From positions 58,489,233 to 58,553,232 of the forward strand of contig CM046853.1 in NCBI GenBank assembly GCA_025617745.1: 64,000 nt of DNA. Direction: 5' to 3'. Position 1 is the stretch's first letter; each line of letters starts with the position of its first letter. Positions 42,801-55,020 of this stretch are shown here, one piece after another. The translations under genes were made by a program, and so were the position numbers. The notes below the pieces were generated by a model that was not told where the DNA came from, made no database searches, and was given only the letters and a program-made list of their open reading frames with translations. The stretch is from Heliocidaris erythrogramma. Lineage: Eukaryota > Echinodermata > Echinoidea > Camarodonta > Echinometridae.

Positions 42801-45800
42801 CTAACGGAATAAAGTAGGATTATGACATACATGTATTTTGTCAAATTTTCCTCATTCATGAAAGAGGATTGGAAAATGACGAGTTTAGGCCTATACATGC
42901 TAGTGTTCTCAAGAGCTATATCCTCAAATATTTTGTTAAACAGCTATTCTCATAAACTATACTGGTGAAATGAATCCCAAAATGATCGCCATTGAAGTCC
43001 CCCTCTCAATTAAACTGTTGATAGGCATCTACCCGCATTGCCCTCCTCTTCAAGACCACTCTGCCACTTTTAGACAGTTATCTAGTGATGTTAAACGAAT
43101 GATTGATGTTTTATACATTCATTACAATCAAAAGAATATAATCTTGAAACACTTCACACTTGAAACTCTTCATATAGGTCCCCTCCACATGTTAAACTGT
43201 TGAATTTCCCTTTAGGGGACTTCGAATTATGGAATAATTGATATTTACGCGTGGAAGGGACCTATACAGCCAGTAATTTATTGACAGTTTTCTAGTGTTT
43301 ATTTCTAGGTTCTTGTGATCATAATGACAAAAATCAAATAAAACAATACATATTAACCATTAAGATTTATTTAGGGGAGAATTAGAAGTATCCTAATGCA
43401 GAATAGATGTCGTGTAAAATAGTGTCCTATCAAAATTTTCAGCAACCATATTTCGAGAGCTTCTGTGTGTAGCTTTGCACCTTTTCGCATCGGTAACAAT
43501 ACTACACTATAGATTTCTTTAAATTGAAAATCTCACGAGTCTCAACCGTGGATTCTTCAGAAAATTTGCTGTAAATTGAGGTCCGTTTCAAATGTGTCCT
43601 AGTGGCTTCGATCACGATTAGGCCCAGCTTTCATGTAAAACTTCCTGAACTACGTGCAAAATGAATGAGTGTGCCGACATGAGCACTATTGTCTTATTGT
43701 CTTGACTAGTTTTTGCATTGTCAAAATTGACACGGCCATCTTCCTGTGTCTTTTTGTGAAAATGGCCATTGTTCTTGCTCAAATTTTGATGAAGTTTTTG
43801 ATTAGTCATAGAGAATCATTATAATATAAAGAAAAATATAAAATTGGGAATTAGAGGAATATCAATGAAATTCTTGTCAATTTCAAGATGCGAAGACATG
43901 CATTGCATAGCATAGGCATAGCCAGGATTAGCTTCGTGAATGTAGAAAAAAAAAAAAAATGGCTATACGCCTTCTACACACGAAGCTAGGCGTTATGTTG
44001 TATACGATGTAATGGCCTATAACAGGAGCGGGCGGGCTACAGGTAGCTATGACGACACACAGCTATGACGACACACAACTATGACGACACACAGCTATGA
44101 TGACGACACACAGTACACATACGTGACGATAGAGGGCGACACAGGCCGGGATATACGTGGGATCACGAGAGCGAGAGCAGTTTTGGAGTGAGACGTCGTT
44201 CGGCGGGTTATCACGGTTGTGGATACACAAGTTTATGTAAGGTAAGATCTGTATGAATGAATGTAAGTGGAATGTGCTGATGGTAGCTGGTTTTTTAAGT
44301 AATAAATTTGGTGATAAATGTACTCGACCACTAAATTGGCGACGAGGATTAAGCGGAAAGCGTGATTGAATGGAATTTTGTTGTGGAATTTTGTAGATTT
44401 GTCCGACGCGGCAGTGGGTCATATGACCAGTTGACGGCGGGAGCGCCATTTTTTTGAATTGAGGTATTTAATATATGCTGTAAATTTGTATTAGATTTAA
44501 TTTGTAATTTGCTGTGATTGGATTTAATGATAATGTTGAGATTGTTTCTGGTGGAAATTTCGAGAGAATGTTAGGTTGTTGGTTTGATTAATGTTTGAAA
44601 TGTGTCTGTATGCGTTGTAATAGTACATTGATTGCATGATTTTGTAGTGTGTTTTTGATCATTCCTGCTAGTGTTTTATTGAGACTGCCGTAGTGTGATT
44701 GCTGATGATTAATTATTTACTTGTGATATTTCAATATAATTATCTTGTATGATTAATGGAATTTGCCGATTTTCTTTTCCGATTATTATTCGGGACTCGG
44801 CCTATGGAATTCTGTTAATTTATATGCGTGTGTAATATTTGTGATTGTTGATTCTCAATTCTTGCCTTCACTGTAGTTGGCGTGATTGTCAATATTTAAT
44901 AATATTGAGAGCATATTTGTATATATATCTTTGTGTTTAGATCCTCAATTATAGAAATGGAGGGCAAGATAAAAATTAACTATTGCACACGGCAACAATT
45001 AATGACGGTTCCTGGCATTGGACCGGCATTAGCGGAGCGAATTATCAACTTGCGGGAAGCAAGCGATATTTGCCCGCTGACGTTGGGTACATTGCCATAT
45101 ATACATAATGTGGAACAAATACTTTCTTATTTTGACTTTGCGCCATATATTCCTCCACCGGAGGGTCGCCTTAATCTTTCACTGGGGGATGAGCCGAGAG
45201 ATAAAACGGCTTTTGATTTAACTCGCACAAACCCCCAGCGGGTTGGGCCCGAAGATCACCTAGCCCCTCTAAACCTCACCTTGGGGAATAGTAACCGGCC
45301 TGCTCCTAAGGCCCCCAAAGTTGTTCAACCTCAGGCAGCTATTTCCATGGGTGGGGGGAGGCAGGATAGGGATTTGGGCCAACCAACCAAATCCACATGG
45401 GGGGCAGATACCTACTATCCCCCGGGTGACCCTAGAAGAGAGGGAATACGCTTCCCAACTGGGGGTAAAAAACAAGCAGGCACAAATTTCAATGAGCAAC
45501 GGCACTCGAATATAGGCGCTATATCGCCTCCAAATTTTAAAGATCAGGTGAGGGAATGTTTGCGGGAAGTGTTGGGGGAATTTCTTCCCCTTCCCAAGCC
45601 TACCATCTCAACAGAGTCCTCACCAGAGGTGAGGGAATGTTTGCGGGAAGTGTTGGGGGAATTTCTTCCCCTTCCCAAGCCCACCGTCCCGACAGAGTTC
45701 CCACCGGAGCGGGCTGGGGAGCATCTAAATCTTCCTCAGCCCCCAGTTCCGGGTGGATTTCTGTCGGGGTGGGCTGGACAGCCCTCACAACCCCTTTACT

Positions 45801-48800
45801 CCAGGGACTTTACACCGGAGTTGTTTCCCCAATTCCGGCCTGAATTTCCCGTACCTAGCGGAACGGGGATTCGAGGGCGGTATGATCCCTATGCACAATT
45901 TCCCAACCAGTATGGGTATATGCATGGTCATACATATCCATACTCATCCCCTCCAGTCCTGCCAGCGTACCGACATGCTGACTACCCACCGGTAGCAGGC
46001 CCCCGGGGCTACCCAGTATTCCCGAGTCCGCCACCTGTTACTCGGGAGTCACCCTTGGGGCCGGACGCGGGAGCGGGACGGAACAGGGAGACCCACAATA
46101 TTCCGACGTCGGTCAGAATGCCACCACGCAAACCCGCTTTTCTTCCAAAAAGCATTACCTATAGTGGTACGGGAAGCTGGATGGCGTTCCTTACAAAGTT
46201 TCAATTGTTTGCCGACGAGAGTAACTGGGACGACACCCAAAGAAGGAATCATTTATGCTGGTCATTAGACGGGGAGGCCAGTAAATACATGGCCCTTCTT
46301 ACGGAGGGAGATCCGGATATGCCTTACGGTACCCTGGTGAAGAAATTGGAAAAGCGTTTTTCCCTTCGTGAGGAGCCCGCTGTGACTCGCATGCAGTTCC
46401 AAGGGGCATCCCAAAAAGTTGAAGAGACGCTAGTCCAGTGGGCTGATCGTCTCATGACACTGGCAGGACAAGCTTTTCTCCGTTTACCGGAGGCGTTCAT
46501 ACAAGAACAAATTGTCGCCCGATTCTGTCAGGGGTCACAAGACAAGGATGCTGGTCAGTATGTTCTGAATAGCAGGCCAAACACACTGGAGATAGCGCTT
46601 GAACGGTACAAGTGGTACCAGTACACACAGAGGACTATCAGAGGTCCCTCCAGCGGCAAGGGCGCAAAGAAGGAAATAAAACAACTGTCGGTGGACCATG
46701 ACCCGGAACCTAGTGTTCAGAGGGTCGCGCCTCCACCGAGGGCTGTTTCAGCAGAAACCAGGGTGGAATCCAGGGTAGGTACTCTAGAGACCAAACTCGA
46801 GACTATGATTGTCCAGCTCACTGCCCTTCAGGCCACAGTGCATGGATTAGCCAGCTCCATCCGGGGACTTACAGTTAGTGTAAGAGGTCGTGGCCCACAA
46901 GCTCGGAGGGATTCTCCGTACAAGTTTAGGGCCACGTCTGGCCAAGACTCAGCCACCCCCGATCGCTCGGTAGTGAGGCTGAGAGCCAACCAGGGGTGCT
47001 ACAATTGTGGACAGTTAGGGCATTTCAGTAGGGAATGTCCTGCCCCGAGGGCTGGCCGGCCAAGGGATGAGCAGACTGAGAAGGCTGCAAGAGTCGTTGG
47101 TTTCCAAGAAAGGGACGCGGAGGAGGGAAACGGACCGAGATCGGAGGGGGCGGGGAGTCCCCAGTCCGATCAGTAAGCCCTTTTTCTGACTCCCGTACGC
47201 TGGTACATCCAGCAAGCCCTATGTATGTTCCCTGGTCCCACCCACCGTGGCCGCCAGACTCGATACTAGAGCGACCAGGAATGGTACATGATCAGATTGA
47301 TTCGGAACGAACCCTGAGCGCTGCCGCCCCATCTCCTTCCGGGGAGTTGGAGGTGGTGGTATGCAGGATCTCCTCCACGTCAATGCTAAACATAGCGATT
47401 GAGATTGGTGCCGAATCTATCAATGCAGTCTTAGACACGGCAGCTGCAGTCACTATTCTTTCTGACAAAGTATTTAAACGTCTAACACCATGCCCAGCGA
47501 CCCTCAAGCAAGTAGTCCTTAAGGGTGCTGGACGGGGCATGAAGATGGATGGTCTTGTAGTCGGACCTATAGACGTTAGAATCGGATCACAAGTGATAAG
47601 TGAGCCCGTATTTGTGGCTCCCATAACAGATGAAATGTTGTTTGGGGTCGACCTATTACGAAAATATGAGGCTCGCATCAATATCTCGGATTCTATCCTA
47701 ACGTTTAACAGTGAGGATATTCCCATTGTACAGCGTGAGGAAGCGGACCAGGATGTTAGTAAAGTATCTGTCAAGGAAGAGGTTAGGGTTCCGCCACTGT
47801 CGGTGCGGAGGGTACAGTGCATTGTTGCTGCGCCCTCTGGGCCATTGTTGTTAGAACCCCAGCCCTCCATGCCTGTACTGATTCCTCGCTCTCTTCATGA
47901 AGCCGGGGGTATCATTTCAGTATACGTTATAAATCCCACAGAGGTTAGCCTGAAGCTAAGAAAGGGTGAGACCTTAGGAGAGGCTCGGGTGGTTTCTATA
48001 GTGGAACCCACTTCGGGTAACCCTACTGATGTCGGGGTAAGGAAGGTCAGTCCTTTTGGCATTTCTCCCAGCATACCCTCTTATTTGCAGGACCTCTGGG
48101 AGCGTTCAATAACCGACCTGATCCCCGATCAGCAAGAACAATTGAAGAATCTATTGATTGAATTTGAATGCGTGTTCGCAAGGGATGAGTTTGACCTCGG
48201 GAATTTTACCGAGATCTCTCATGCTATCGACACGGGGGACGCCCAACCCATAAAACAGAAAATGAGGCGAACTCCCCTTAACTTCGTTCAGGAAGAACGG
48301 GCTCATCTTAATAAGATGTTGGCCGCTGGGGTAATTAAACCCTCCATGTCAGAATGGGCTTCTGCCCCCGTGTTGGTAAGAAAGCGTGATGGAGGCGTCC
48401 GCTGGTGCATTGATTATAGGAAGCTAAACAATGTTACCAGGAAGGATGTCTACCCACTCCCTTGCATCGAAGAATGTTTAGATACTCTGGCCGGTAATGA
48501 ATGGTTCTCTAAACTGGATGCCAATTCGGCGTATTGGCAAATTAAAATCAGGAAGGAAGACCGGGACAAAACGGCCTTTGTCACAAAGCATGGGCTGTTT
48601 GAGTTCGCACGCATGGGTTTTGGGTTGTGCAATGCCCCGGCTACTTTCCAACGTGTGATGCATCTCGTTCTAAGGGGTCTTACCTGGGATATAGCCCTCG
48701 CCTTTCTCGATGATGTGGTTGTGTTGGGAACCACCTTCAGCGATCACATAAAAAACCTTAGGCTGGTCTTGGAACGTTTCCGGGACCATAAGTTGAAACT

Positions 48801-51800
48801 GAAGCCCAAAAAGTGTGCCTTTTTCAAACGAAGGGTGGAGTTTCTGGGCAGAGAGGTTGATGGCGAGGGGCTACATCTCAAGGAGGAGCATGTTAAGGCA
48901 GTGGTAAACTGGCCCCCTCCTACTTCGACCAAGGAGGTTGAACAATTCTTAGGATTAGCCAATTACCATCGGGGATTCCTTAAGAACTACGCACAGGTGG
49001 CAGAGCCGTTGTATGGACTCACGGGTAAGCACAAGTTCGGCTGGACGGAAGAGCACCAGCTGGCATTTGAGCAAGTGAAGAGCCTGATGACGTCCGCCCC
49101 TGTTCTTGTTCTGCCTAATCCAACTGACCTATTCATTCTCGATACCGACGCTTCGGCGACGGCCGTGGGGGCTGAATTGTTGCAGGTTCAGGAGGGTGAG
49201 GAGAGAGTAATTTCTTATGGCAGCCTCTCTCTTACTCCTGAACAGCGCAACTATTGTGTCACTCGCCGGGAGTTGTTAGCCGTAGTAAGGTTTACCCGTC
49301 AATATAGACATTATTTACTGGGCAAACCATTTACCTTACGGACTGACCACGGGAGTTTAACTTGGTTGCTTAATTTCAAGGAGCCCCAAGGCCAGCTGGC
49401 GCGCTGGCTTGAGGAATTGGGTCAATATAACATGACTGTCGAACATCGACCAGGTAGGCATCATCAAAATGCTGATGCTCTTTCACGGGTGCCTGACAGT
49501 GAACCTTTCTGTGAGACTTACCGTCTGGGCATCCACCCGGAAGATTTGCCTTGTGGTGGTTGCTCTTACTGCTACAAGAGACACAAGGATTGGGCCCACT
49601 TCGTTGATGTCGTGGACGACGTGGTTCCCTTAACGGGGGGACTAAGGTAGCAGGTGTTGCCCTCGAGGAAGATTTCTGTGTTACTCACATGGACATCTCC
49701 CATGAGGGGAGTATGCCCTCCTTTTTCGTAAACAATGTTCAGTTAGACGATGCCTCATCTGGAGCTTCTGATGGTCTGCCCGCTCTTCATCTAATTAAAG
49801 TCGAGCAAGAGGCAGACCCGCAGCTCGGCTACCTATGTAGGTGGCTTAAAGATAAGGTTGAACTAGACCAAGGAACTCTGTTTCTCCTTTCACCCGAAGG
49901 TAAGTTCTTATGGGTGAATAGAGAGCTCTTCACCATGAGGGAGGGAATAATCTGGAGGAAGAGAGATGATGTGGATGTCGTTGTAGTCCCCCAGTCACTT
50001 CGACAGAACATCATCCGCCTCAATCATGACCCACCCTCGGCTGGGCATGCAGGTGTGAGTCGTACTCGGGCAAAGTTGAAGTCCAAGTACTATTGGTACG
50101 GCATGTCTGAGGATATTCGAGGGTACATCAGTAAGTGTGCCACCTGCAATCAGAACAAAAAGGCCACACGCTATGGGAGGCACCCTATGCAGAGTTATCA
50201 TGCGGGGGCTCCCATGGAGCGAGTCCATTTGGATTTCATTGGGCCTTTGCCGAAAACAGCACAGGGACATGCGCACATACTGATGATGGTTGACCAATTT
50301 ACAAAGTGGGTGGAGTGCGTACCCCTGCCCTCCCAATCGGCGGAAGGTACAGCTCATGCCACGGTGTGCGAGTTCTTCTGCCGGTTCGGGTATCCTTTCC
50401 AAATATTCACAGATCAAGGCAGGAATTTTGAGAGTAGGTTATTCAAGAACATGTGCCGTATCCTGCAGATCCACAAGACGAAGACTACTCCCTACCGCCC
50501 TTCCGCCAATGGCCAAGTGGAGCGGTTTAATCGAACTTTGTTGGATGCGGTGCGATGCTACATTGGGAGGTCCCAAAGGGATTGGGATAAGTACCTACCT
50601 CAAATCGCAGGGGCCATACGCGCCACGGTAAACCGAAGCACAGGATTTACTCCAAACAGGCTTATGCTCGGCCGAGAAGTAAACCTGCCTGCTGATCTTG
50701 TTTTCACCATTCCGACATCCCCACCCAACAGGCCCATAGACGAGTATGCGACAGACCTGGCGAATGCAATGCGCCATGCTCATGCGTCAGCCCGGGCGGC
50801 CCTCAAGTCGACTCAGCGGTTGATGAAGCGTGACTATGACGTAAAGCAACATGTACGCCAATTCGAGGTCGGTGACCGCGTCTATATTTTAGATACGGCC
50901 ATAACCAAGGGGAGGTCACGGAAGTTGTCTCCCCCCTGGAAAGGTCCTGCGGTCATCACTCAAAGACTATCACCATACTTGTATAGGGTGGCCTATAAGA
51001 GAAGAGCCTTTACCCTAAACCACGACCGTCTCAAGAAGTGCACGGATAGGAGTGAAGCCCTCACGGGTGCCCCCAAAGATGTCTATTGTTTTTGTAAGGG
51101 TCCCGACGATGGATCATTAATGATACAATGTGACGGATGTAACGAATGGTTTCATGGCAGTTGTGTAGGAGTAACATTAGCGGAAAGTTTCGAAATGGAC
51201 AAGTATTTTTGTCCGTTTTGCAACAGGAACAGGTGATATGAGTCTCTGTACATTCGGTAGCGGGTCGTAAGTAGAATTGTGTTGTTTGATTTAACCACCT
51301 GTATCTTCCTTTCTGTTTTTTCCTATGCAGGTTTAGGCTATGAACAGGGACATGAAAAACACAGGTCCGGATCATCCGTCAGGTGAGGAGGAGGCTGCCC
51401 CGGCTGAGGTGCCGATTTCTTGGGAGGCCGATCCCTTGGCCCTTCCTCCACCGCCGGTCTCCTGGTTGGGGGGGAATGACTTCCCTCTTCCACCGGAGGA
51501 TTGGTTGGATGGGGAGGCTCAGGCTTCGGATGACCCATGGCATACAGCGCGGGTGGCCACCTCGCCTAATGACATGCAGTCAGACATAGGGTTGGACCGA
51601 GGCCCGCAGCAGGACGCACTGCTGCCCTCTTCCCTGGAGCCATTAGAACCGGGCGAGATCAGGGGGGACGTGGCGGTAGAATCCGATAATGTAGTCAACC
51701 TGCGGGCACGGTCGGGGATTAATCGAAGAACAATAAAACGGAGGGAGCGCCGGAAGCGGATACGTAACGCGGTACGTTCACACATGGACCCGGTTCCGCT

Positions 51801-54800
51801 TCCGGGGCCTCCTCCTCCACGATCGTCCCCGGGCCGGGGATGGGGCCGCAAAAATTCGGCTCCGTTTCCGGACCCGATGCGCTTCTGTGGTCGGGGCCGT
51901 AGTAATACCCGGCCCCACACGTCCACGGAAACCTTGGATAGGGGATTACCCATAGTAGGTGCGATGCCCCCACGACGACCGGTTGTCACCCTCTTGACGG
52001 GATTTGACAGTCACTACCATCTGGACAGGGTAAAGCGGTCCCAGAGGTTGTGTGAGCCCGTCGGGAGGCCTGACTACCCGGTGGAGGTAACCGGAGGGAT
52101 CATGAATTATTGCGACCCTTCCACATATATGAACTCCGGGTATCTCGACCGGGTGATCGAGGGGTTGCCCAGCTCTTTTGGCGTCGCGGTGGGCATCCAC
52201 CCTAAACATGCCCATCGGGTGAAGGCAGAGGAGTGGTCTGCCCTTGTAGCTGCCCTGGCTAATCCCAGGGTGGTCGGCATTTCGGAGGTTGGCCTGGATT
52301 TTTCTGTCTCGGAATCTCGCTGGCCGGCGCAGGAGGTACTCTTAGCGCGCCTCCTGGGCCTGTCAACTGGGAGGGTTCTGGTGGTCCATCTCCGAGGTGC
52401 CGTGAGTGGCAAGGGCGGTTCGGACTCGGTTTCCAGGTCGGCGCATACCATCGCGCGCCGTAAGATTGCTAGCAACTGCCCGCGAGAGCAACGCATCCAC
52501 ATCCATTGTTTTGAGGGCACTCCCAGCATTGTGGATGAGTGGATGGCCCTGTTTCCCCATGTATACTTTGGGGTGACGGGACTGGCTAAAAGGCACCTGG
52601 GTGCGAGGTCCCCTCAGGCCATGGGAATCAGGGCCATCCCTGACAATCGCCTGCTACTAGAGACAGATGCGCCACATCTGCCCGTCCACCCCCAACAATC
52701 ATGGCATACCCCAGAATTCCTGGGAGATGTCGGCTATGTCGTAGCCCGGATTCGGGGAGTCTCTCTCACCGGTCTTATGCGGGAGACGGCCGCTAACGGC
52801 ATGAGGCTGTATGGCCTCTGCTAATTTCAGGATTTTGCCAGATAAGTTGCGCGCGTTTTGTTTATTATTCCGTTTTTCCATACCAGCTCTTGCACCCCCC
52901 TGCAACCCCAATATATGTTTATGTATGTATTTATGTTTCACTTTATATGCCATATATGGAACACCATGTTATAACAGTTGCTGTGAAAATCCTCCGGTAC
53001 GAGTTTTCATACCCCCGTGGTTTTTCGAACACTTGTGTTCTCCGTATTGTTCGTTTGTTTGTTTATTGCAAATTCTATTCAGTAAATTCTATGTATTGAT
53101 TGTTTGATTTACGTGTTGAAATTTGCAGGGGTATGCAAGTCCCTCCGCCATATTCGACCTACATATATATAAAAATGTGCGCGCGTGGGCGAATAAGGTG
53201 TGCTGATGGAAATTTTAAAGATATTATTTAGAAAAAAAAATGGATGTGAAAAAACAATGTAAGAATGTAATAATTGCAGTACTTAATCATAATGTTATGT
53301 TGTGGGAAATTCATGAATATTTCAACTGAACAAAAATTTATATCAAGAAAATGTAATGATGTATAATGTTATGTTGTGGGGAATTTCTTGAGTATTTCAA
53401 CTAAAAAAAAAAAAGAAAGAATGTTAAAATGTTAATAATTTAACGGGGACAAGAGACTTCCCCCCGGCCTTTTTGAGACAACCGGGGGGAATGTTGTATA
53501 CGATGTAATGGCCTATAACAGGAGCGGGCGGGCTACAGGTAGCTATGACGACACACAGCTATGACGACACACAACTATGACGACACACAGCTATGATGAC
53601 GACACACAGTACACATACGTGACGATAGAGGGCGACACAGGCCGGGATATACGTGGGATCACGAGAGTTGGGCAGTTTTGGAGTGAGACGTCGTTCGGCG
53701 GGTTATCACGGTTGTGGATACACAAGTTTATGTAAGGTAAGATCTGTATGAATGAATGTAAGTGGAATGTGCTGATGGTAGCTGGTTTTTTAAGTAATAA
53801 ATTTGGTGATAAATGTACTCGACCACCAAAGTTATTACCCAGCAATCAGATTCCGCACGGGGTAGTACGACATGAAAAATGCCTTGAAATCACACTTTTC
53901 TGATAGTTTCCGCGACCCACAGACCCTTCCCCACAGCGTTTCCTCCTAGGGAAACGTTTGTAATGACAATTTTTTTTTGATTGACTCTAATTTTGGAAAT
54001 ATATCCATAAAAAGATGATAAAAATTTCAGAAAACTCACCAGCGTTTGCGTATCCATGCCTCCGAGGTCATGCAGATCAAAATGGCGGCACGATCGCCGT
54101 AATCGAAATCATGAAAACTATTAGGCGCCGTTTGTAAATTTATTATTTAGCTCAATTATTTACATATAATTCACTATTTAGCTCTTTTCTACGATTATTA
54201 TACGATAAAATGACATAAAGGATACAATGTTTTATAAATAATGAATTTTGCAATTTCCATTTTTTTTAAATAATGATTTTACAATATTCATCATATATAA
54301 ATAATGAATTTTGAAGTTTCCATTATTTATAAATAATGATTTCACAAATTCATTATATATCAAATATTATGGAAATTGCAAAATTCATTATTTATAAAAC
54401 ATTGTATCCTTTATGTCATTTTATCGTATAATAATCGTAGAAAAGAGCTAAATAGTGAATTATATGTAAATAATTGAGCTAAATAATAAATTTACAAACG
54501 GCGCCTAATAGTTTTCATGATTTCGATTACGGCGATCGTGCCGCCATTTTGATCTGCATGACCTCGGAGGCATGGATACGCAAACGCTGGTGAGTTTTCT
54601 GAAATTTTTATCATCTTTTTATGGATATATTTCCAAAATTAGAGTCAATCAAAAAAAAATTGTCATTACAAACGTTTCCCTAGGAGGAAACGCTGTGGGG
54701 AAGGGTCTGTGGGTCGCGGAAACTATCAGAAAAGTGTGATTTCAGGGCATTTTTCATGTCGTACTACCCCGTGCGGAATCTGATTGCTGGGTAATAACGC

Positions 54801-55020
54801 CTAGCTTCGTGTGTAGAAGGCGTATTGCCATTTTTTTTTTTTTTACATTCACGAAGCTAATCCTGGCTACATAGGCATAGGCCTATAGGGCTATAGGCCT
54901 ATCAATCACACAAGCCTACCTGCTGGACGTCGACGGTCTCACCACGGTAGAAATACCGCCAGCTCCCCGCTCGAGGACCACCATCGAATTTGGAGTGGTA
55001 CTGCCATCTCTACTCTCCAT
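33876..55020 (-). CDS. ERICH2: ERICH2-like glutamate-rich protein, eleven exons
   Basis: Minus-strand coding exons: 55020-54920, 40830-40800, 40079-40031, 38497-38221, 37833-37511, 37159-37073, 36707-36529, 35879-35822, 35505-35434, 34623-34479, 33981-33876. All junctions are GT/AG with matching phases, giving 1428 nt (475 residues plus stop). The start is MESRDGSTTPNSM. Exon 4 is Ser/Arg-rich (low complexity). Exon 5 contains SWDFVPEDIVRL and a charged, probably coiled-coil segment. Exon 7 is acidic (DDDEDDDEEENEED). Exons 7-9 form the conserved core: APIELMGE, FLDSVMEEDYETADKLCKM, ILIYEPDNAECLQFK. The tail (exons 10-11) is a long Asp/Glu/Ser tract. The core matches what I recall of vertebrate ERICH2, whose biochemical role is not established. 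No signal peptide or membrane segment. Intron 1 (14 kb) holds the palindrome and retrotransposon; introns 3 and 7 hold a mariner-like foldback and a SINE. Exon structure is strongly supported; the name is moderately sure. Confidence 0.8.
34911..35138. other. Intronic repeat-like segment, unidentified
   Basis: Segment in intron 9 of the ERICH2-like gene with GACCCGGATATGATCCGGGC and relatively high G/C compared with its surroundings. It looks like inserted repeat DNA, but I cannot name a family. Confidence 0.25.
35195..35400. mobile_element. About 200-bp palindromic MITE
   Basis: TGCAATGTGTCCCGTACAAC at about 35200 is inverted as GTCGTACAGGACACATTGCA at about 35375-35395. It lies in intron 9 of the ERICH2-like gene. 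Non-coding. Confidence 0.65.
36150..36416 (+). mobile_element. Full-length tRNA-derived SINE, antisense in ERICH2 intron 7
   Basis: The tRNA-related head has an A-box region (GTGGTCTAGTGGATAAG) and a perfect B-box (GGTTCGAATCC) about 40 bp apart. The body contains CCACTCTCCACCCAGGTGTA, shared with the SINE at 23711. The tail ends GAGCGCTATATAAGTGG followed by ATTATTATAT. It has intact internal RNA polymerase III promoter boxes. It is not a tRNA gene, because the 3' half does not fold to the acceptor stem. Confidence 0.8.
38039..38185. mobile_element. Palindromic MITE with GATTGGCTG core, copy B
   Basis: Ends GGCCCGTTTCAT and ATGAAATGGAGTCC; inner arms GTTATCAATAAC and GTTATTGATAACAAC; core GCTACTGAAATCGTTGCATT then TGATTGGCTG. 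It sits in intron 4 of the ERICH2-like gene, about 35 bp past the exon 4 donor. Confidence 0.75.
38620..39620. mobile_element. Mariner/Tc1-like foldback element, copy 2
   Basis: Left TIR CAGTGCATTCCAAAAAAAAG (38620) and right TIR, read in reverse, CAGTTCGTCCCAGAAAAAAAG (to 39620); TA flanks both ends. The subterminal sequence ACAGTTGGAAAAA is present on both arms, and extended inverted similarity runs inward (GTGCAAAATTCAGACTTGAC versus its complement near 39440). It lies in intron 3 of the ERICH2-like gene and shares ends with the element at 14106. No intact ORF. Confidence 0.75.
39884..39902. repeat. C19 homopolymer
   Basis: Uninterrupted run of 19 C on the plus strand, G19 in the sense of the surrounding ERICH2-like gene (intron 3). 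Confidence 0.9.
41571..43266. mobile_element. 1.7-kb foldback element with hairpin ends and internal tandem repeats
   Basis: The two arms (41571 to about 41930, and about 42970 to 43266) are inverted copies: landmarks TATAGGTCCCCTCCA, GTTTCAAGATTATATTCT, CATCAATGATTCGTTTA and GGCAGAGTGGTCTTGAAGAG appear in order on one strand at the left and on the other at the right. Each terminus is itself a stem-loop (GGTCCCCTCCATGTGTTAA near 41575 against TTAACACATGGAGGGGAC near 41684). The centre (about 42050-42880) is a degenerate tandem array of words such as TTTTGTCAAAGCTTTCCTC and CATGAAATCATAATTATG at a spacing of roughly 100-120 bp. Non-coding; inside intron 1 of the ERICH2-like gene. Confidence 0.75.
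43996..44335 (+). repeat. 5' LTR
   Basis: Begins TGTTGTATACGATG and ends CGACCACTAAA. The left part contains four copies of a 16-bp unit AGCTATGACGACACAC (44045-44113), a plausible enhancer array. A candidate poly(A) signal AATAAA is at 44301-44306, and a consensus 5' splice site AAG|GTAAGA at 44241/44242. The 3' terminus is not CA; it is fixed by the target duplication outside the 3' LTR. Confidence 0.93.
44242..44247 (+). promoter_or_regulatory. Candidate 5' splice donor inside the LTR
   Basis: AAG|GTAAGA matches the metazoan donor consensus at nearly all positions. If transcription starts upstream in the LTR this would be the leader donor. It could join to the acceptor at 51329-51330 (TatD ORF) or to the weaker TTTAG at 44940 just before gag. 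Inference from sequence only. Confidence 0.45.
44336..44956 (+). other. Primer binding site and 5' leader
   Basis: TTGGCGACGAGGATTAAGC begins immediately after the LTR, the expected place for the tRNA primer binding site; the cognate tRNA was not identified. About 600 nt of A/T-rich leader follow with many short upstream ATG frames. A possible splice acceptor (TTTGTGTTTAG) ends at 44940, 16 nt before the gag ATG. Confidence 0.7.
44957..47176 (+). CDS. gag: Gag with N-terminal helix-hairpin-helix and CCHC knuckle
   Basis: 739 residues from ATG 44957; the frame is open upstream to 44933, but no ATG is there. Residues 7-34 (INYCTRQQLMTVPGIGPALA and on) form a helix-hairpin-helix motif of the ComEA/polymerase type with the GIG hairpin at 20-22; HhH motifs bind DNA non-specifically. 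Residues about 60-390 are proline-rich and disordered and contain a perfect or near-perfect 27-residue direct repeat (RECLREVLGEFLPLPKPT twice, DNA period 81 bp, from 45549). Residues about 395-560 are the Ty3-type retrotransposon Gag capsid-like domain (SWMAFLTKFQLFADE, FCQGSQD). A zinc knuckle C681-x2-C684-x4-H689-x4-C694 (CYNCGQLGHFSREC) packages RNA. The last 45 residues overlap the -1 frame leading to pol. An HhH on Gag is unusual and may have been acquired. Confidence 0.9.
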   Translation: MEGKIKINYCTRQQLMTVPGIGPALAERIINLREASDICPLTLGTLPYIHNVEQILSYFDFAPYIPPPEGRLNLSLGDEPRDKTAFDLTRTNPQRVGPEDHLAPLNLTLGNSNRPAPKAPKVVQPQAAISMGGGRQDRDLGQPTKSTWGADTYYPPGDPRREGIRFPTGGKKQAGTNFNEQRHSNIGAISPPNFKDQVRECLREVLGEFLPLPKPTISTESSPEVRECLREVLGEFLPLPKPTVPTEFPPERAGEHLNLPQPPVPGGFLSGWAGQPSQPLYSRDFTPELFPQFRPEFPVPSGTGIRGRYDPYAQFPNQYGYMHGHTYPYSSPPVLPAYRHADYPPVAGPRGYPVFPSPPPVTRESPLGPDAGAGRNRETHNIPTSVRMPPRKPAFLPKSITYSGTGSWMAFLTKFQLFADESNWDDTQRRNHLCWSLDGEASKYMALLTEGDPDMPYGTLVKKLEKRFSLREEPAVTRMQFQGASQKVEETLVQWADRLMTLAGQAFLRLPEAFIQEQIVARFCQGSQDKDAGQYVLNSRPNTLEIALERYKWYQYTQRTIRGPSSGKGAKKEIKQLSVDHDPEPSVQRVAPPPRAVSAETRVESRVGTLETKLETMIVQLTALQATVHGLASSIRGLTVSVRGRGPQARRDSPYKFRATSGQDSATPDRSVVRLRANQGCYNCGQLGHFSRECPAPRAGRPRDEQTEKAARVVGFQERDAEEGNGPRSEGAGSPQSDQ
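47125..47171 (+). promoter_or_regulatory. Gag-Pol -1 ribosomal frameshift signal
   Basis: The heptamer GGGAAAC (47125-47131) sits exactly in the X XXY YYZ phase of the gag frame (codons GGA AAC). A 7-nt spacer follows, then a hairpin: GATCGGA (47139-47145) pairs with TCCGATC (47165-47171), and inside it GGGG (47152-47155) pairs with CCCC (47159-47162). The -1 frame is open from here into the protease-RT ORF. Slippery site, spacer and stem match the textbook arrangement of retroviral frameshift signals. Confidence 0.75.
47221..49650 (+). CDS. pol: Protease, reverse transcriptase and RNase H
   Basis: The first ATG is at 47221, but the frame is open further upstream to the gag frameshift site, so the ATG is probably internal. 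Order: aspartic protease with active-site LDTAAAVTIL (residues 71-80; D72, where most retropepsins have DTGA and this has DTAA); reverse transcriptase with first catalytic Asp at D433 (SKLDANSAYW) and the FLDDVV box (D497, D498); connection; RNase H with D643 (DTDAS), E684 (RREL), D709 (RTDHG) and D752 (NADALSR). All RT and RNase H catalytic residues are present. The ORF ends in TAG at 49648, but the -1 frame continues into the integrase ORF from a G6 run at 49635-49640. Ty3/gypsy by domain order; clade not assigned. Confidence 0.93.
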   Translation: MYVPWSHPPWPPDSILERPGMVHDQIDSERTLSAAAPSPSGELEVVVCRISSTSMLNIAIEIGAESINAVLDTAAAVTILSDKVFKRLTPCPATLKQVVLKGAGRGMKMDGLVVGPIDVRIGSQVISEPVFVAPITDEMLFGVDLLRKYEARINISDSILTFNSEDIPIVQREEADQDVSKVSVKEEVRVPPLSVRRVQCIVAAPSGPLLLEPQPSMPVLIPRSLHEAGGIISVYVINPTEVSLKLRKGETLGEARVVSIVEPTSGNPTDVGVRKVSPFGISPSIPSYLQDLWERSITDLIPDQQEQLKNLLIEFECVFARDEFDLGNFTEISHAIDTGDAQPIKQKMRRTPLNFVQEERAHLNKMLAAGVIKPSMSEWASAPVLVRKRDGGVRWCIDYRKLNNVTRKDVYPLPCIEECLDTLAGNEWFSKLDANSAYWQIKIRKEDRDKTAFVTKHGLFEFARMGFGLCNAPATFQRVMHLVLRGLTWDIALAFLDDVVVLGTTFSDHIKNLRLVLERFRDHKLKLKPKKCAFFKRRVEFLGREVDGEGLHLKEEHVKAVVNWPPPTSTKEVEQFLGLANYHRGFLKNYAQVAEPLYGLTGKHKFGWTEEHQLAFEQVKSLMTSAPVLVLPNPTDLFILDTDASATAVGAELLQVQEGEERVISYGSLSLTPEQRNYCVTRRELLAVVRFTRQYRHYLLGKPFTLRTDHGSLTWLLNFKEPQGQLARWLEELGQYNMTVEHRPGRHHQNADALSRVPDSEPFCETYRLGIHPEDLPCGGCSYCYKRHKDWAHFVDVVDDVVPLTGGLR
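49635..49661 (+). promoter_or_regulatory. G6 slippery run joining RNase H frame to integrase frame
   Basis: GGGGGGA at 49635-49641 is in X XXY YYZ phase with the upstream frame (codons GGG GGA), and the -1 frame is open from here through the integrase ORF. A modest hairpin follows after 4 nt (GGTAGCA at 49646-49652 with TGTTGCC at 49655-49661, including G-T pairs). This is either a second programmed -1 frameshift or a one-base loss in a G homopolymer (real mutation or sequencing error). The sequence alone cannot decide. Confidence 0.5.
49689..51236 (+). CDS. pol (IN): Integrase with C-terminal PHD finger
   Basis: 515 residues from the first ATG; the frame is open upstream to the G6 run. The N-terminal zinc-binding domain has H113, H120, C150 and C153 (NHDPPSAGH ... 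CATC). The DDE catalytic core has D182 (HLDFIGPL), D242 (FTDQGRNF) and E278 (NGQVERFNR). The C-terminal GPY/F-like module is seen at SPPWKGPAVI. A complete PHD finger follows at residues 464-515: C467-x-C469-x11-C481-x2-C484-x4-H489-x2-C492-x15-C508-x2-C511. Around it Y466, M478 and W487 sit where H3K4me3-reading PHD fingers (CXXC1, DIDO, KDM7 type) have their aromatic cage. Chromoviruses carry a chromodomain in this position to steer integration; here a PHD finger takes its place. Predicted role: strand transfer of element cDNA with targeting to methylated H3K4 chromatin (targeting is inference). Confidence 0.92.
   Translation: MDISHEGSMPSFFVNNVQLDDASSGASDGLPALHLIKVEQEADPQLGYLCRWLKDKVELDQGTLFLLSPEGKFLWVNRELFTMREGIIWRKRDDVDVVVVPQSLRQNIIRLNHDPPSAGHAGVSRTRAKLKSKYYWYGMSEDIRGYISKCATCNQNKKATRYGRHPMQSYHAGAPMERVHLDFIGPLPKTAQGHAHILMMVDQFTKWVECVPLPSQSAEGTAHATVCEFFCRFGYPFQIFTDQGRNFESRLFKNMCRILQIHKTKTTPYRPSANGQVERFNRTLLDAVRCYIGRSQRDWDKYLPQIAGAIRATVNRSTGFTPNRLMLGREVNLPADLVFTIPTSPPNRPIDEYATDLANAMRHAHASARAALKSTQRLMKRDYDVKQHVRQFEVGDRVYILDTAITKGRSRKLSPPWKGPAVITQRLSPYLYRVAYKRRAFTLNHDRLKKCTDRSEALTGAPKDVYCFCKGPDDGSLMIQCDGCNEWFHGSCVGVTLAESFEMDKYFCPFCNRNR
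51300..51330 (+). promoter_or_regulatory. 3' splice acceptor upstream of the TatD ORF
   Basis: A polypyrimidine tract (CTTCCTTTCTGTTTTTTCCT) ends in ATGCAG at 51325-51330, nine bases before the ORF's ATG (GTTTAGGCT|ATG). The ORF is separated from integrase by a stop and about 100 non-coding bases, so splicing offers a direct way to express it, as for retroviral env. Confidence 0.6.
51340..52824 (+). CDS. TatD-family metal-dependent nuclease ORF in the env position
   Basis: 494 residues. Residues 1-208 are low complexity: acidic/proline-rich at first, then a strongly basic stretch at 128-143 (NRRTIKRRERRKRIRN) resembling a nuclear localisation or RNA-binding motif. Residues about 215-494 are a TatD-like TIM-barrel hydrolase with its motifs in order: DSHYHLDR (H225, H227), VGIHPKHA (H287), GISEVGLDF (E316), VVHLRGA (H350), IHCFEGT (H389), LLLETDAPHL (D443), and the C-terminal NGMRLYGL signature. 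The metal ligands H225, H227, E316, H350, H389 and D443 are all present, so activity is plausible. TatD proteins are 3'-5' exo- or endonucleases on DNA and, for the TATDN2 branch, RNA and R-loops. There is no signal peptide or membrane segment, so it is not an envelope. It may process cDNA ends, RNA-DNA hybrids or host nucleic acid; the role is unknown. Confidence 0.92.
   Translation: MNRDMKNTGPDHPSGEEEAAPAEVPISWEADPLALPPPPVSWLGGNDFPLPPEDWLDGEAQASDDPWHTARVATSPNDMQSDIGLDRGPQQDALLPSSLEPLEPGEIRGDVAVESDNVVNLRARSGINRRTIKRRERRKRIRNAVRSHMDPVPLPGPPPPRSSPGRGWGRKNSAPFPDPMRFCGRGRSNTRPHTSTETLDRGLPIVGAMPPRRPVVTLLTGFDSHYHLDRVKRSQRLCEPVGRPDYPVEVTGGIMNYCDPSTYMNSGYLDRVIEGLPSSFGVAVGIHPKHAHRVKAEEWSALVAALANPRVVGISEVGLDFSVSESRWPAQEVLLARLLGLSTGRVLVVHLRGAVSGKGGSDSVSRSAHTIARRKIASNCPREQRIHIHCFEGTPSIVDEWMALFPHVYFGVTGLAKRHLGARSPQAMGIRAIPDNRLLLETDAPHLPVHPQQSWHTPEFLGDVGYVVARIRGVSLTGLMRETAANGMRLYGLC
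52825..53480 (+). other. Retrotransposon 3' untranslated region
   Basis: Non-coding A/T-rich region between the TatD ORF and the polypurine tract. A diverged direct repeat of about 65 bp (TAATGTTATGTTGTGGG near 53290 and 53356, each followed by a TATTTCAACT word) lies near its end. Confidence 0.7.
53481..53491 (+). promoter_or_regulatory. Polypurine tract
   Basis: CCGGGGGGAA directly precedes the TGTTG start of the 3' LTR, the position of the plus-strand primer. A mirror CCCCCGG at 53461 can pair with it (CCCCCGGCC ... CCGGGGG), giving a hairpin just before the LTR. Confidence 0.75.
53492..53830 (+). repeat. 3' LTR
   Basis: Matches the 5' LTR except for one small cluster (GAGAGTTGGGCAG versus GAGAGCGAGAGCAG) and a C instead of T near the end. 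It contains the same 16-bp repeats, splice donor and AATAAA (53796-53801). It is followed by the GTTA target duplication and then by the resumed palindrome (TTACCCAGC). Confidence 0.93.
54079..54089 (-). promoter_or_regulatory. YY1-like motif, left arm of the palindrome
   Basis: AAAATGGCGGC, the mirror of the motif at 54540. On the minus strand it reads GCCGCCATTTT and is followed outward by ATGs and a GTGAGT donor (complement ACTCACC near 54034-54040). Confidence 0.5.
54540..54596 (+). promoter_or_regulatory. YY1-like motif, ATGs and splice donor, right arm of the palindrome
   Basis: GCCGCCATTTTG at 54540-54551 matches the YY1 consensus. ATG codons follow at 54558 and 54572, and CTG|GTGAGT, a strong 5' splice site, lies at 54589/54590. 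YY1 just downstream of a start site and before the first ATG is a common promoter arrangement in animals. The same arrangement exists inverted on the left arm, so the element may be a bidirectional promoter with two short first exons pointing outward. No transcript evidence is available. Confidence 0.45.

What the first reader, a model, noticed from the sequence alone, without database searches (positions are those of the whole stretch)
51340..52824. TatD-family nuclease encoded by a Ty3/gypsy retrotransposon in the env position
Seen: a 494-codon intact ORF between integrase and the 3' LTR whose C-terminal ~280 residues contain every TatD motif in order, with H225, H227, E316, H350, H389 and D443 all present. 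Known: TatD/TATDN proteins are metal-dependent nucleases on DNA and, in the TATDN2 branch, on RNA and R-loops. LTR elements normally carry env or nothing here, and I know of no described Ty3/gypsy element with a TatD gene. Inference: the enzyme could trim cDNA ends, resolve RNA-DNA hybrids during reverse transcription, or attack competing or defensive nucleic acids. Its intactness beside near-identical LTRs suggests it is under selection in the element.
Basis: partly seen in the sequence, partly recalled or inferred. Interest (0 to 1): 0.95.

Follow-up and report, generated by a model that had tools for sequence, protein, structure and literature searches.

The report
Retrotransposon carrying a TatD nuclease gene
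A virus-like jumping gene, probably in a sea urchin, carries a nuclease gene of the TatD family where related elements may keep an envelope gene, and a starfish gene model and a second protein show the same arrangement, so the nuclease looks like a lasting part of this lineage rather than an accident.

Summary

A one-off transduction is unlikely: an Acanthaster gene model encodes integrase, PHD finger and TatD, and another protein runs PHD into TatD. They belong to a family of 39 rows, window included; those with organism names are echinoderms, plus one MAG protein. The 36 rows treed form one moderately supported group beside TATDN2-like proteins.

New here: the element's best-scoring 3' splice site lies just before the TatD start, as expected for an env-like spliced gene, and the tails hold GRGRG repeats.

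Corrections: pol of this copy changes frame between RNase H and integrase, and nuclease ORF3s have a precedent (DEDDy, PMC5408684). Copy number and dN/dS could not be tested. Function is inferred.

The parts
43992..43995 (.). target-site duplication GTTA, left copy
   Evidence: empty site in the opposite fold-back arm
43996..44335 (+). 5' LTR (TG start)
   Evidence: 98.5% identical to the 3' LTR
44242..44243 (+). candidate 5' splice site AAG|GTAAGA in the LTR (inferred)
   Evidence: rank 7 of 596 GT in the element (tied with its copy in the 3' LTR), best of those before gag
44336..44350 (+). primer-binding site TTGGCGACGAGGATT; fits the 3' end of tRNA-Ser(GCT) as recalled, not tested
   Evidence: sequence; tRNA identity recalled
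44957..47176 (+). gag: HHH motif at N-terminus, PNMA-like match (just under Pfam's cut-off), CCHC knuckle (first ATG 44957)
47221..49650 (+). pol part 1: aspartic protease, reverse transcriptase, RNase H
49608..49650 (+). overlap of the two open pol frames, within which the frame changes in this copy
49689..51236 (+). pol part 2: integrase (H2C2, rve) with C-terminal PHD finger (protein residues 467-511)
51330..51331 (+). candidate 3' splice site: polypyrimidine tract, then ATGCAG|GTTTAGGCT before the ATG at 51340 (inferred)
   Evidence: rank 1 of 609 AG in the element
51340..52824 (+). TatD ORF (494 aa): mostly disordered proline-rich tail, Arg-rich helix (about residues 122-147), GRG at 165 and 184, TatD barrel 219-494
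53480..53491 (+). polypurine tract AACCGGGGGGAA
53492..53830 (+). 3' LTR
53831..53834 (.). target-site duplication GTTA, right copy

Best explanation
A Ty3/gypsy retrotransposon with a PHD-finger integrase carries, as its third gene in the env position, a class II (HxH) TatD metallonuclease, acquired long ago from a TATDN2-like animal gene and kept across diverse elements. The gene is most likely expressed apart from Gag-Pol, from a spliced subgenomic mRNA (LTR donor near 44242, acceptor 51330), as env genes are. The protein has an Arg-rich, GRG-bearing tail that would bind RNA or direct it to the nucleus or germ granules, and a barrel that would cut RNA in RNA:DNA hybrids or trim 3' ends. Most likely role: an auxiliary nuclease that clears or trims hybrids and 3' ends arising during the element's own reverse transcription and integration. 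Shown: element structure, ORF, domain, ligands, relatives with the same gene order. Inferred: source gene, splicing, activity, location, role.
Against: No transcript, enzyme or mobility data. The element already has an RNase H. Direct linkage to integrase or PHD is seen in only 3 cases (window, P0004, P0037), all inside one 29-row part of the family tree; the other 36 family rows, the deepest ones among them, are placed by homology only. Of 120 listed relatives of the Acanthaster integrase, 1 (P0037 itself) lists TatD in the same protein; this is expected if TatD is a separate ORF but does not prove linkage. P0033 and P0034 keep the ORF with ligands lost, so catalysis is not always needed. Support for the family alone is moderate (88/64). 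17 of 39 rows have no GRG. Splice scoring used consensus frequencies recalled from memory.
Confidence: 0.5

Rival explanations
1. Same gene and origin, but the nuclease is a counter-defence or rival-exclusion factor: made from its own mRNA and drawn by its Arg/GRG tail to germ granules, it destroys small-RNA precursors, hybrid intermediates of silencing, or transcripts and cDNA of competing elements.
For: Inferred separate expression; GRG-rich tails, a motif that in PIWI proteins recruits Tudor proteins (recalled); fast-changing tails; a TATDN2-like protein (P0012) has 3 GRG too and tatdn2 works in germ cells (PMC12709183, passages); TatD nucleases serve conflict elsewhere (QatD model hits, far below NCBI's cut-off).
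Against: No substrate or localisation data; the GRG-Tudor link is recalled; only 22 of 39 family rows hold any GRG.
Confidence: 0.25
2. Passenger gene: a transduced host TATDN2-like sequence without benefit to the element.
For: The rotifer paper reports no significant departure from neutrality for its ORF3s (PMC5408684, passage). P0033 and P0034 have lost ligands yet keep the ORF. TatD ORF GC is 0.60 against 0.376 in the window, as for foreign sequence, though gag (0.53) and pol (0.50) are also richer.
Against: 33 of 39 rows keep all six ligands across proteins down to about 28% identical to the window's; domain more conserved than tail in 12 of 13 pairs; intact 494-codon ORF in a copy whose pol changes frame.
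Confidence: 0.08
3. The zinc-finger/TatD proteins are a host gene family, and a few elements captured members independently.
For: 36 of 39 family rows have no proven element context; several sit on chromosome-size contigs with gene-model names.
Against: The three element-linked cases fall in different subgroups of a 29-row part of the tree, which with a host family would need several captures into the same slot after a PHD integrase; Lytechinus variegatus alone has three divergent members (P0001, P0027, P0043).
Confidence: 0.12
4. Not TatD, or chance similarity.
For: None found.
Confidence: 0.01

Closest known systems
Enzymatic ORF3s of bdelloid rotifer LTR retrotransposons (Juno, Vesta: DEDDy exonuclease, GDSL esterase; PMC5408684, passages)
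   Same: A nuclease gene as third ORF, catalytic residues intact, shared by several elements.
   Different: Unrelated fold and chemistry (RNase D-like DEDDy against TatD TIM barrel); other hosts; 'TatD' occurs 0 times in that paper's main text.
TATDN2 (host TatD, HxH class)
   Same: Class II motif, long N-terminal extension, nearest cellular rows in the tree.
   Different: Window protein is element-borne, has HPK where the 4 TATDN2-like and 10 bacterial-labelled rows have HPH (all 39 family rows have K or R there), and scores lower than TATDN2 on general TatD models.
env-carrying Ty3/gypsy elements (errantiviruses) and other env-bearing LTR elements (recalled; env capture also in passages of PMC12440569)
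   Same: Third gene after integrase; strong 3' splice site before its start, as in spliced env genes (recalled).
   Different: The product looks like a soluble nuclease; Pfam finds only TatD_DNase in it.
Chromoviruses and PHD-integrase Ty3/gypsy elements
   Same: Histone-reader-type domain at the integrase C-terminus. Of 120 listed relatives of the Acanthaster integrase 114 carry the PHD finger (my count); 123 of 173 held proteins match the window's IN ORF.
   Different: Reader is PHD, not chromodomain; TatD added.
QatD, TatD nuclease of a bacterial anti-phage system
   Same: TatD nuclease used in genetic conflict; weak profile matches.
   Different: Far below NCBI's cut-off (40 against 230 bits); partner Qat genes not searched for.

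Membership tests
Ty3/gypsy LTR retrotransposon | LTR pair with target-site duplication | tested here: met
Ty3/gypsy LTR retrotransposon | gag, then PR-RT-RNase H-IN order | tested here: met
   pol changes frame in this copy
Ty3/gypsy LTR retrotransposon | primer-binding site and polypurine tract | tested here: met
   by eye; tRNA identity recalled, not tested
TatD nuclease, class II (HxH) | PF01026 above gathering score | tested here: met
   109.7 against 27 bits
TatD nuclease, class II (HxH) | HxH, E, H, H, D metal ligands | tested here: met
   class definition from PMC10085689, passages
TatD nuclease, class II (HxH) | TIM-barrel fold like solved TatD | tested here: met
   (predicted model)
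TatD nuclease, class II (HxH) | metal-dependent nuclease activity | not testable with these tools
   needs purified protein
TATDN2 orthology group | falls inside the TATDN2 clade of a TatD tree with TATDN1 and TATDN3 | tested here: inconclusive
   beside 4 TATDN2-like rows (1 named so by its source, 3 by me) and away from bacterial-labelled rows; no TATDN1 or TATDN3 rows in the tree
NCBI models TIGR00010, TatD, QatD, PRK10812, PRK11449 | curated cut-off | tested here: not met
   all 5 hits below cut-off
Enzymatic ORF3 of LTR elements | catalytic ORF between IN and 3' LTR of one LTR pair | tested here: met
   ligands present, activity untested
Enzymatic ORF3 of LTR elements | present in more than one element | tested here: met
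   P0037 and P0004, (integrase or PHD beside TatD; their LTRs were not seen)
Enzymatic ORF3 of LTR elements | DEDDy or GDSL enzyme type | tested here: not met
   Pfam finds only TatD_DNase; filed as a new type, not as DEDDy or GDSL

The most novel reading that the evidence does not exclude
A lineage of Ty3/gypsy elements spread over echinoderms and probably molluscs has turned a germline R-loop nuclease of the TATDN2 type into a separately spliced weapon: an RNA/hybrid nuclease sent by its GRG tail to germ granules to cut the host's silencing RNAs or rival elements, a nuclease-based counter-silencing factor of a retrotransposon.
Probability: 0.15. Interest if true: 0.92.

Novelty: new variant of a known kind. 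Interest (0 to 1): 0.72.

Why it matters
It adds another, unrelated nuclease fold to the genes that LTR retrotransposons keep in the env slot, and this one seems long-lived and related to a host gene reported to resolve R-loops in germ cells. That makes a concrete question testable: what does a retrotransposon gain from its own hybrid or 3'-end nuclease when it already has RNase H? It may also explain some 'TATDN2-like' gene models of marine invertebrates as transposon genes (one such name, P0035 of Lytechinus pictus, is in the family).

Tried and rejected
Copy number and dN/dS in the window's own genome: the genome search was sent nine times and each time answered that the machine was busy or out of reach, so neither was measured. 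DNA of relatives: a viral-contig scan (105 stretches matched a pattern, 0 confirmed) and a genome-contig scan (42 stretches, 0 confirmed) gave no loci, so all comparisons with relatives are at protein level.

Not used as evidence.

A join of IN and TatD by splicing across the short gap was considered; by reading, the nearest donor joined to the 51330 acceptor would meet a stop soon, so a separate start behind an upstream leader is preferred. Chance similarity was rejected. A second model (P0005) was searched for its zinc-finger/helical domain; the best rows are barrel proteins, so that domain's kin stay unknown. Rfam and tRNA scans of the window gave 0 matches.

Literature: no paper describing TatD in a retroelement was recognised among the listings of TatD + retrotransposon (14 papers), gypsy + TatD (35, 3), TatD + transposable element (50, 27 held, 25 listed), any two of TatD, transposon, Metaviridae (51, 158 held, 15 listed), TatD + reverse transcriptase + LTR (73, 8). 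Further searches for PHD integrases, extra ORFs and TATDN2 gave the rotifer precedent only. Passages alone were read, in PMC5408684, PMC10085689, PMC12709183, PMC6962438, PMC12440569 and PMC5408686. The library is open-access full text; Repbase entries and most subscription papers were not searched.

Full report
What is there. The window holds a 9.8 kb Ty3/gypsy element. Its LTRs (43996-44335 and 53492-53830) differ by 4 mismatches and 1 gap in 341 columns; three of the mismatches and the gap lie in one short stretch. GTTA flanks both ends. The element sits in one arm of a fold-back transposon; the joined flanks occur once in the window, without mismatch, in the other arm at 54775-54812 on the minus strand, so the insertion is plain. 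Inside are gag (HHH motif, CCHC, and a PNMA match of 24.6 bits just under the cut-off of 25), protease-RT-RNase H (47221-49650), integrase with a C-terminal PHD finger (49689-51236) and the 494-codon ORF at 51340-52824. tblastn at E 1e-3 finds no other piece of these four ORFs in the window.

State of this copy. The pol frame changes between RNase H and integrase. Five relatives (P0056, P0058, P0060, P0063, P0071) match both sides as one protein, with the window sides in different frames. Whether this is damage or a programmed shift cannot be told here; since the relatives read the region in one frame, damage is likelier. The TatD ORF is unbroken.

Relatives. Three protein searches gave 24, 37 and 901 hits, the last listed to 120. 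I treat 39 rows (window, P0001-P0011, P0025-P0051) as the family and 16 rows (P0012-P0024, P0052-P0054) as outside it. Of the 39, 33 have all six ligands, 3 lack letters at a ligand (P0008, P0050, P0051) and 3 have substitutions (P0027, P0033, P0034). All 39 have K or R after the HP motif or its remnant (34 HPK, 3 HPR, 2 NPK); of the 16 outside, 14 have HPH, P0052 has HPK and P0023 HPV (my count). The window is probably echinoid (inference; nearest integrase P0063, 74%, unnamed; nearest named P0071 of L. pictus, 67%).

Linkage. P0037 of Acanthaster holds Integrase_H2C2, rve, PHD and TatD in one gene model, and P0004 holds the end of a PHD finger followed by TatD. These two alone of the 173 proteins held match both the window's integrase and its TatD. 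Gene models can join neighbouring ORFs, so this shows adjacency, not a fusion protein, and their LTRs were not seen. The two and the window fall in different subgroups, but all within one 29-row part of the family tree; for the deeper rows no linkage is shown.

Origin. In a tree of 52 domains (3 fragments, P0008, P0050, P0051, dropped) the 36 family rows are one side of a branch with support 88/64, rising to 98/96 with P0023 and 97/91 with P0052 as well. TATDN2-like rows come next (P0015 so named by its source; P0012, P0053, P0054 so labelled by me), and 10 rows that I labelled bacterial stand apart at 100/100 and were used as root. P0023 and P0048 are long branches. TATDN1 and TATDN3 were not included. 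A source in a TATDN2-like animal gene is favoured, not proven.

Expression. Scored with consensus splice frequencies that I recalled, the AG at 51330 is the best of 609 in the element. On both strands of the window 4 of 6956 AG score as high, itself included. It leaves a 9-nt leader before the TatD ATG. The best acceptors in the 100 nt before gag, PR-RT and IN score 1.08, 0.09 and -3.41 against 9.47. The best donor before gag is AAG|GTAAGA at 44242 in the LTR; stronger donors exist inside gag, pol and TatD. P0004's residues at its likely TatD start (FCFYLCRM) back-translate to a pyrimidine-rich run with AG just before ATG. A spliced subgenomic mRNA, as for env, is an inference.

Tail. Over all 39 rows, GRG occurs 56 times before the domain against 8.5 expected in 200 shuffles (maximum 19), GRGRG 17 times against 0.055 (maximum 1); 22 of 39 rows have at least one GRG, and the TatD domains together hold 5. 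The rows are related, so this is not a probability. The window has GRG at 165 and 184, no GRGRG. An Arg/Lys-rich stretch recurs in several tails (for example window NRRTIKRRERRKRIR, P0030 KKRTWRRKIRRK, P0029 HTWKRRQQRKTQRRR; read; not tested statistically). By a loose pattern 24 of 39 rows also hold a C2H2-like finger, followed in the P0005 model by helices. Of the proteins scanned none has a Pfam match above cut-off there; P0033 has a weak Transpos_assoc match (E 0.012). The pattern finds no finger in the window or P0001.

Selection. No DNA of copies was available. In 13 pairs that I chose, the domain is more conserved than the tail in 12 (exception P0004/P0025, 89% and 90%). This fits purifying selection on the barrel but does not replace dN/dS.

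How it may work. Kin act as 3' exonucleases and AP endonucleases (TATDN1, TATDN3) or as R-loop RNases (TATDN2, as reported in PMC12709183). A separately made nuclease of this class, if its tail binds RNA, could clear hybrids and trim 3' ends during the element's replication (my first choice), or act against silencing RNAs or rival elements. P0033 and P0034, without most ligands, warn that binding alone may sometimes suffice.

Known kinds. The closest precedent found is the DEDDy exonuclease ORF3 of bdelloid LTR elements (PMC5408684; abstract and passages). TatD in this place was not recognised in the listings of five full-text searches. I rate it a new variant of a known kind.

Noticed in passing
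P0151, a relative of the window's pol: An RT-RNase H-integrase-PHD protein carries a Tpt1/KptA RNA 2'-phosphotransferase domain (E 4e-43) between integrase and PHD: a second nucleic-acid enzyme taken up by this element family.
   Followed up: partly
P0033 and P0034: Two long family members with the barrel kept but ligands changed to HYDYHN and two finger-like motifs each; likely non-catalytic, perhaps domesticated.
   Followed up: partly
window 44957-45100: gag begins with a helix-hairpin-helix motif (HHH_3, E 1.3e-6), which I recall as unusual for gag.
   Followed up: no
window 45546-45707: 81-base tandem duplication inside gag, 91% identical copies.
   Followed up: no
window 53831-54798: Fold-back element with 437-base arms, 99% complementary, 94 bases between; the LTR element split one arm.
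   Followed up: partly
P0002-P0005, P0007, P0009-P0011, P0026 and others: A C2H2-like finger plus helical domain before TatD, found by pattern in 24 of 39 rows, without a Pfam match above cut-off in those scanned.
   Followed up: partly
P0160: A PHD-integrase protein of Mytilus galloprovincialis is named 'COMPASS component SPP1', apparently because of its PHD finger; probably a transposon protein.
   Followed up: no
PMC6962438 (passage): A 'TATDN2' gene model is listed among non-Hox genes, one of them pogo-like, inside the giant squid Hox cluster; it may be such an element's TatD gene.
   Followed up: no
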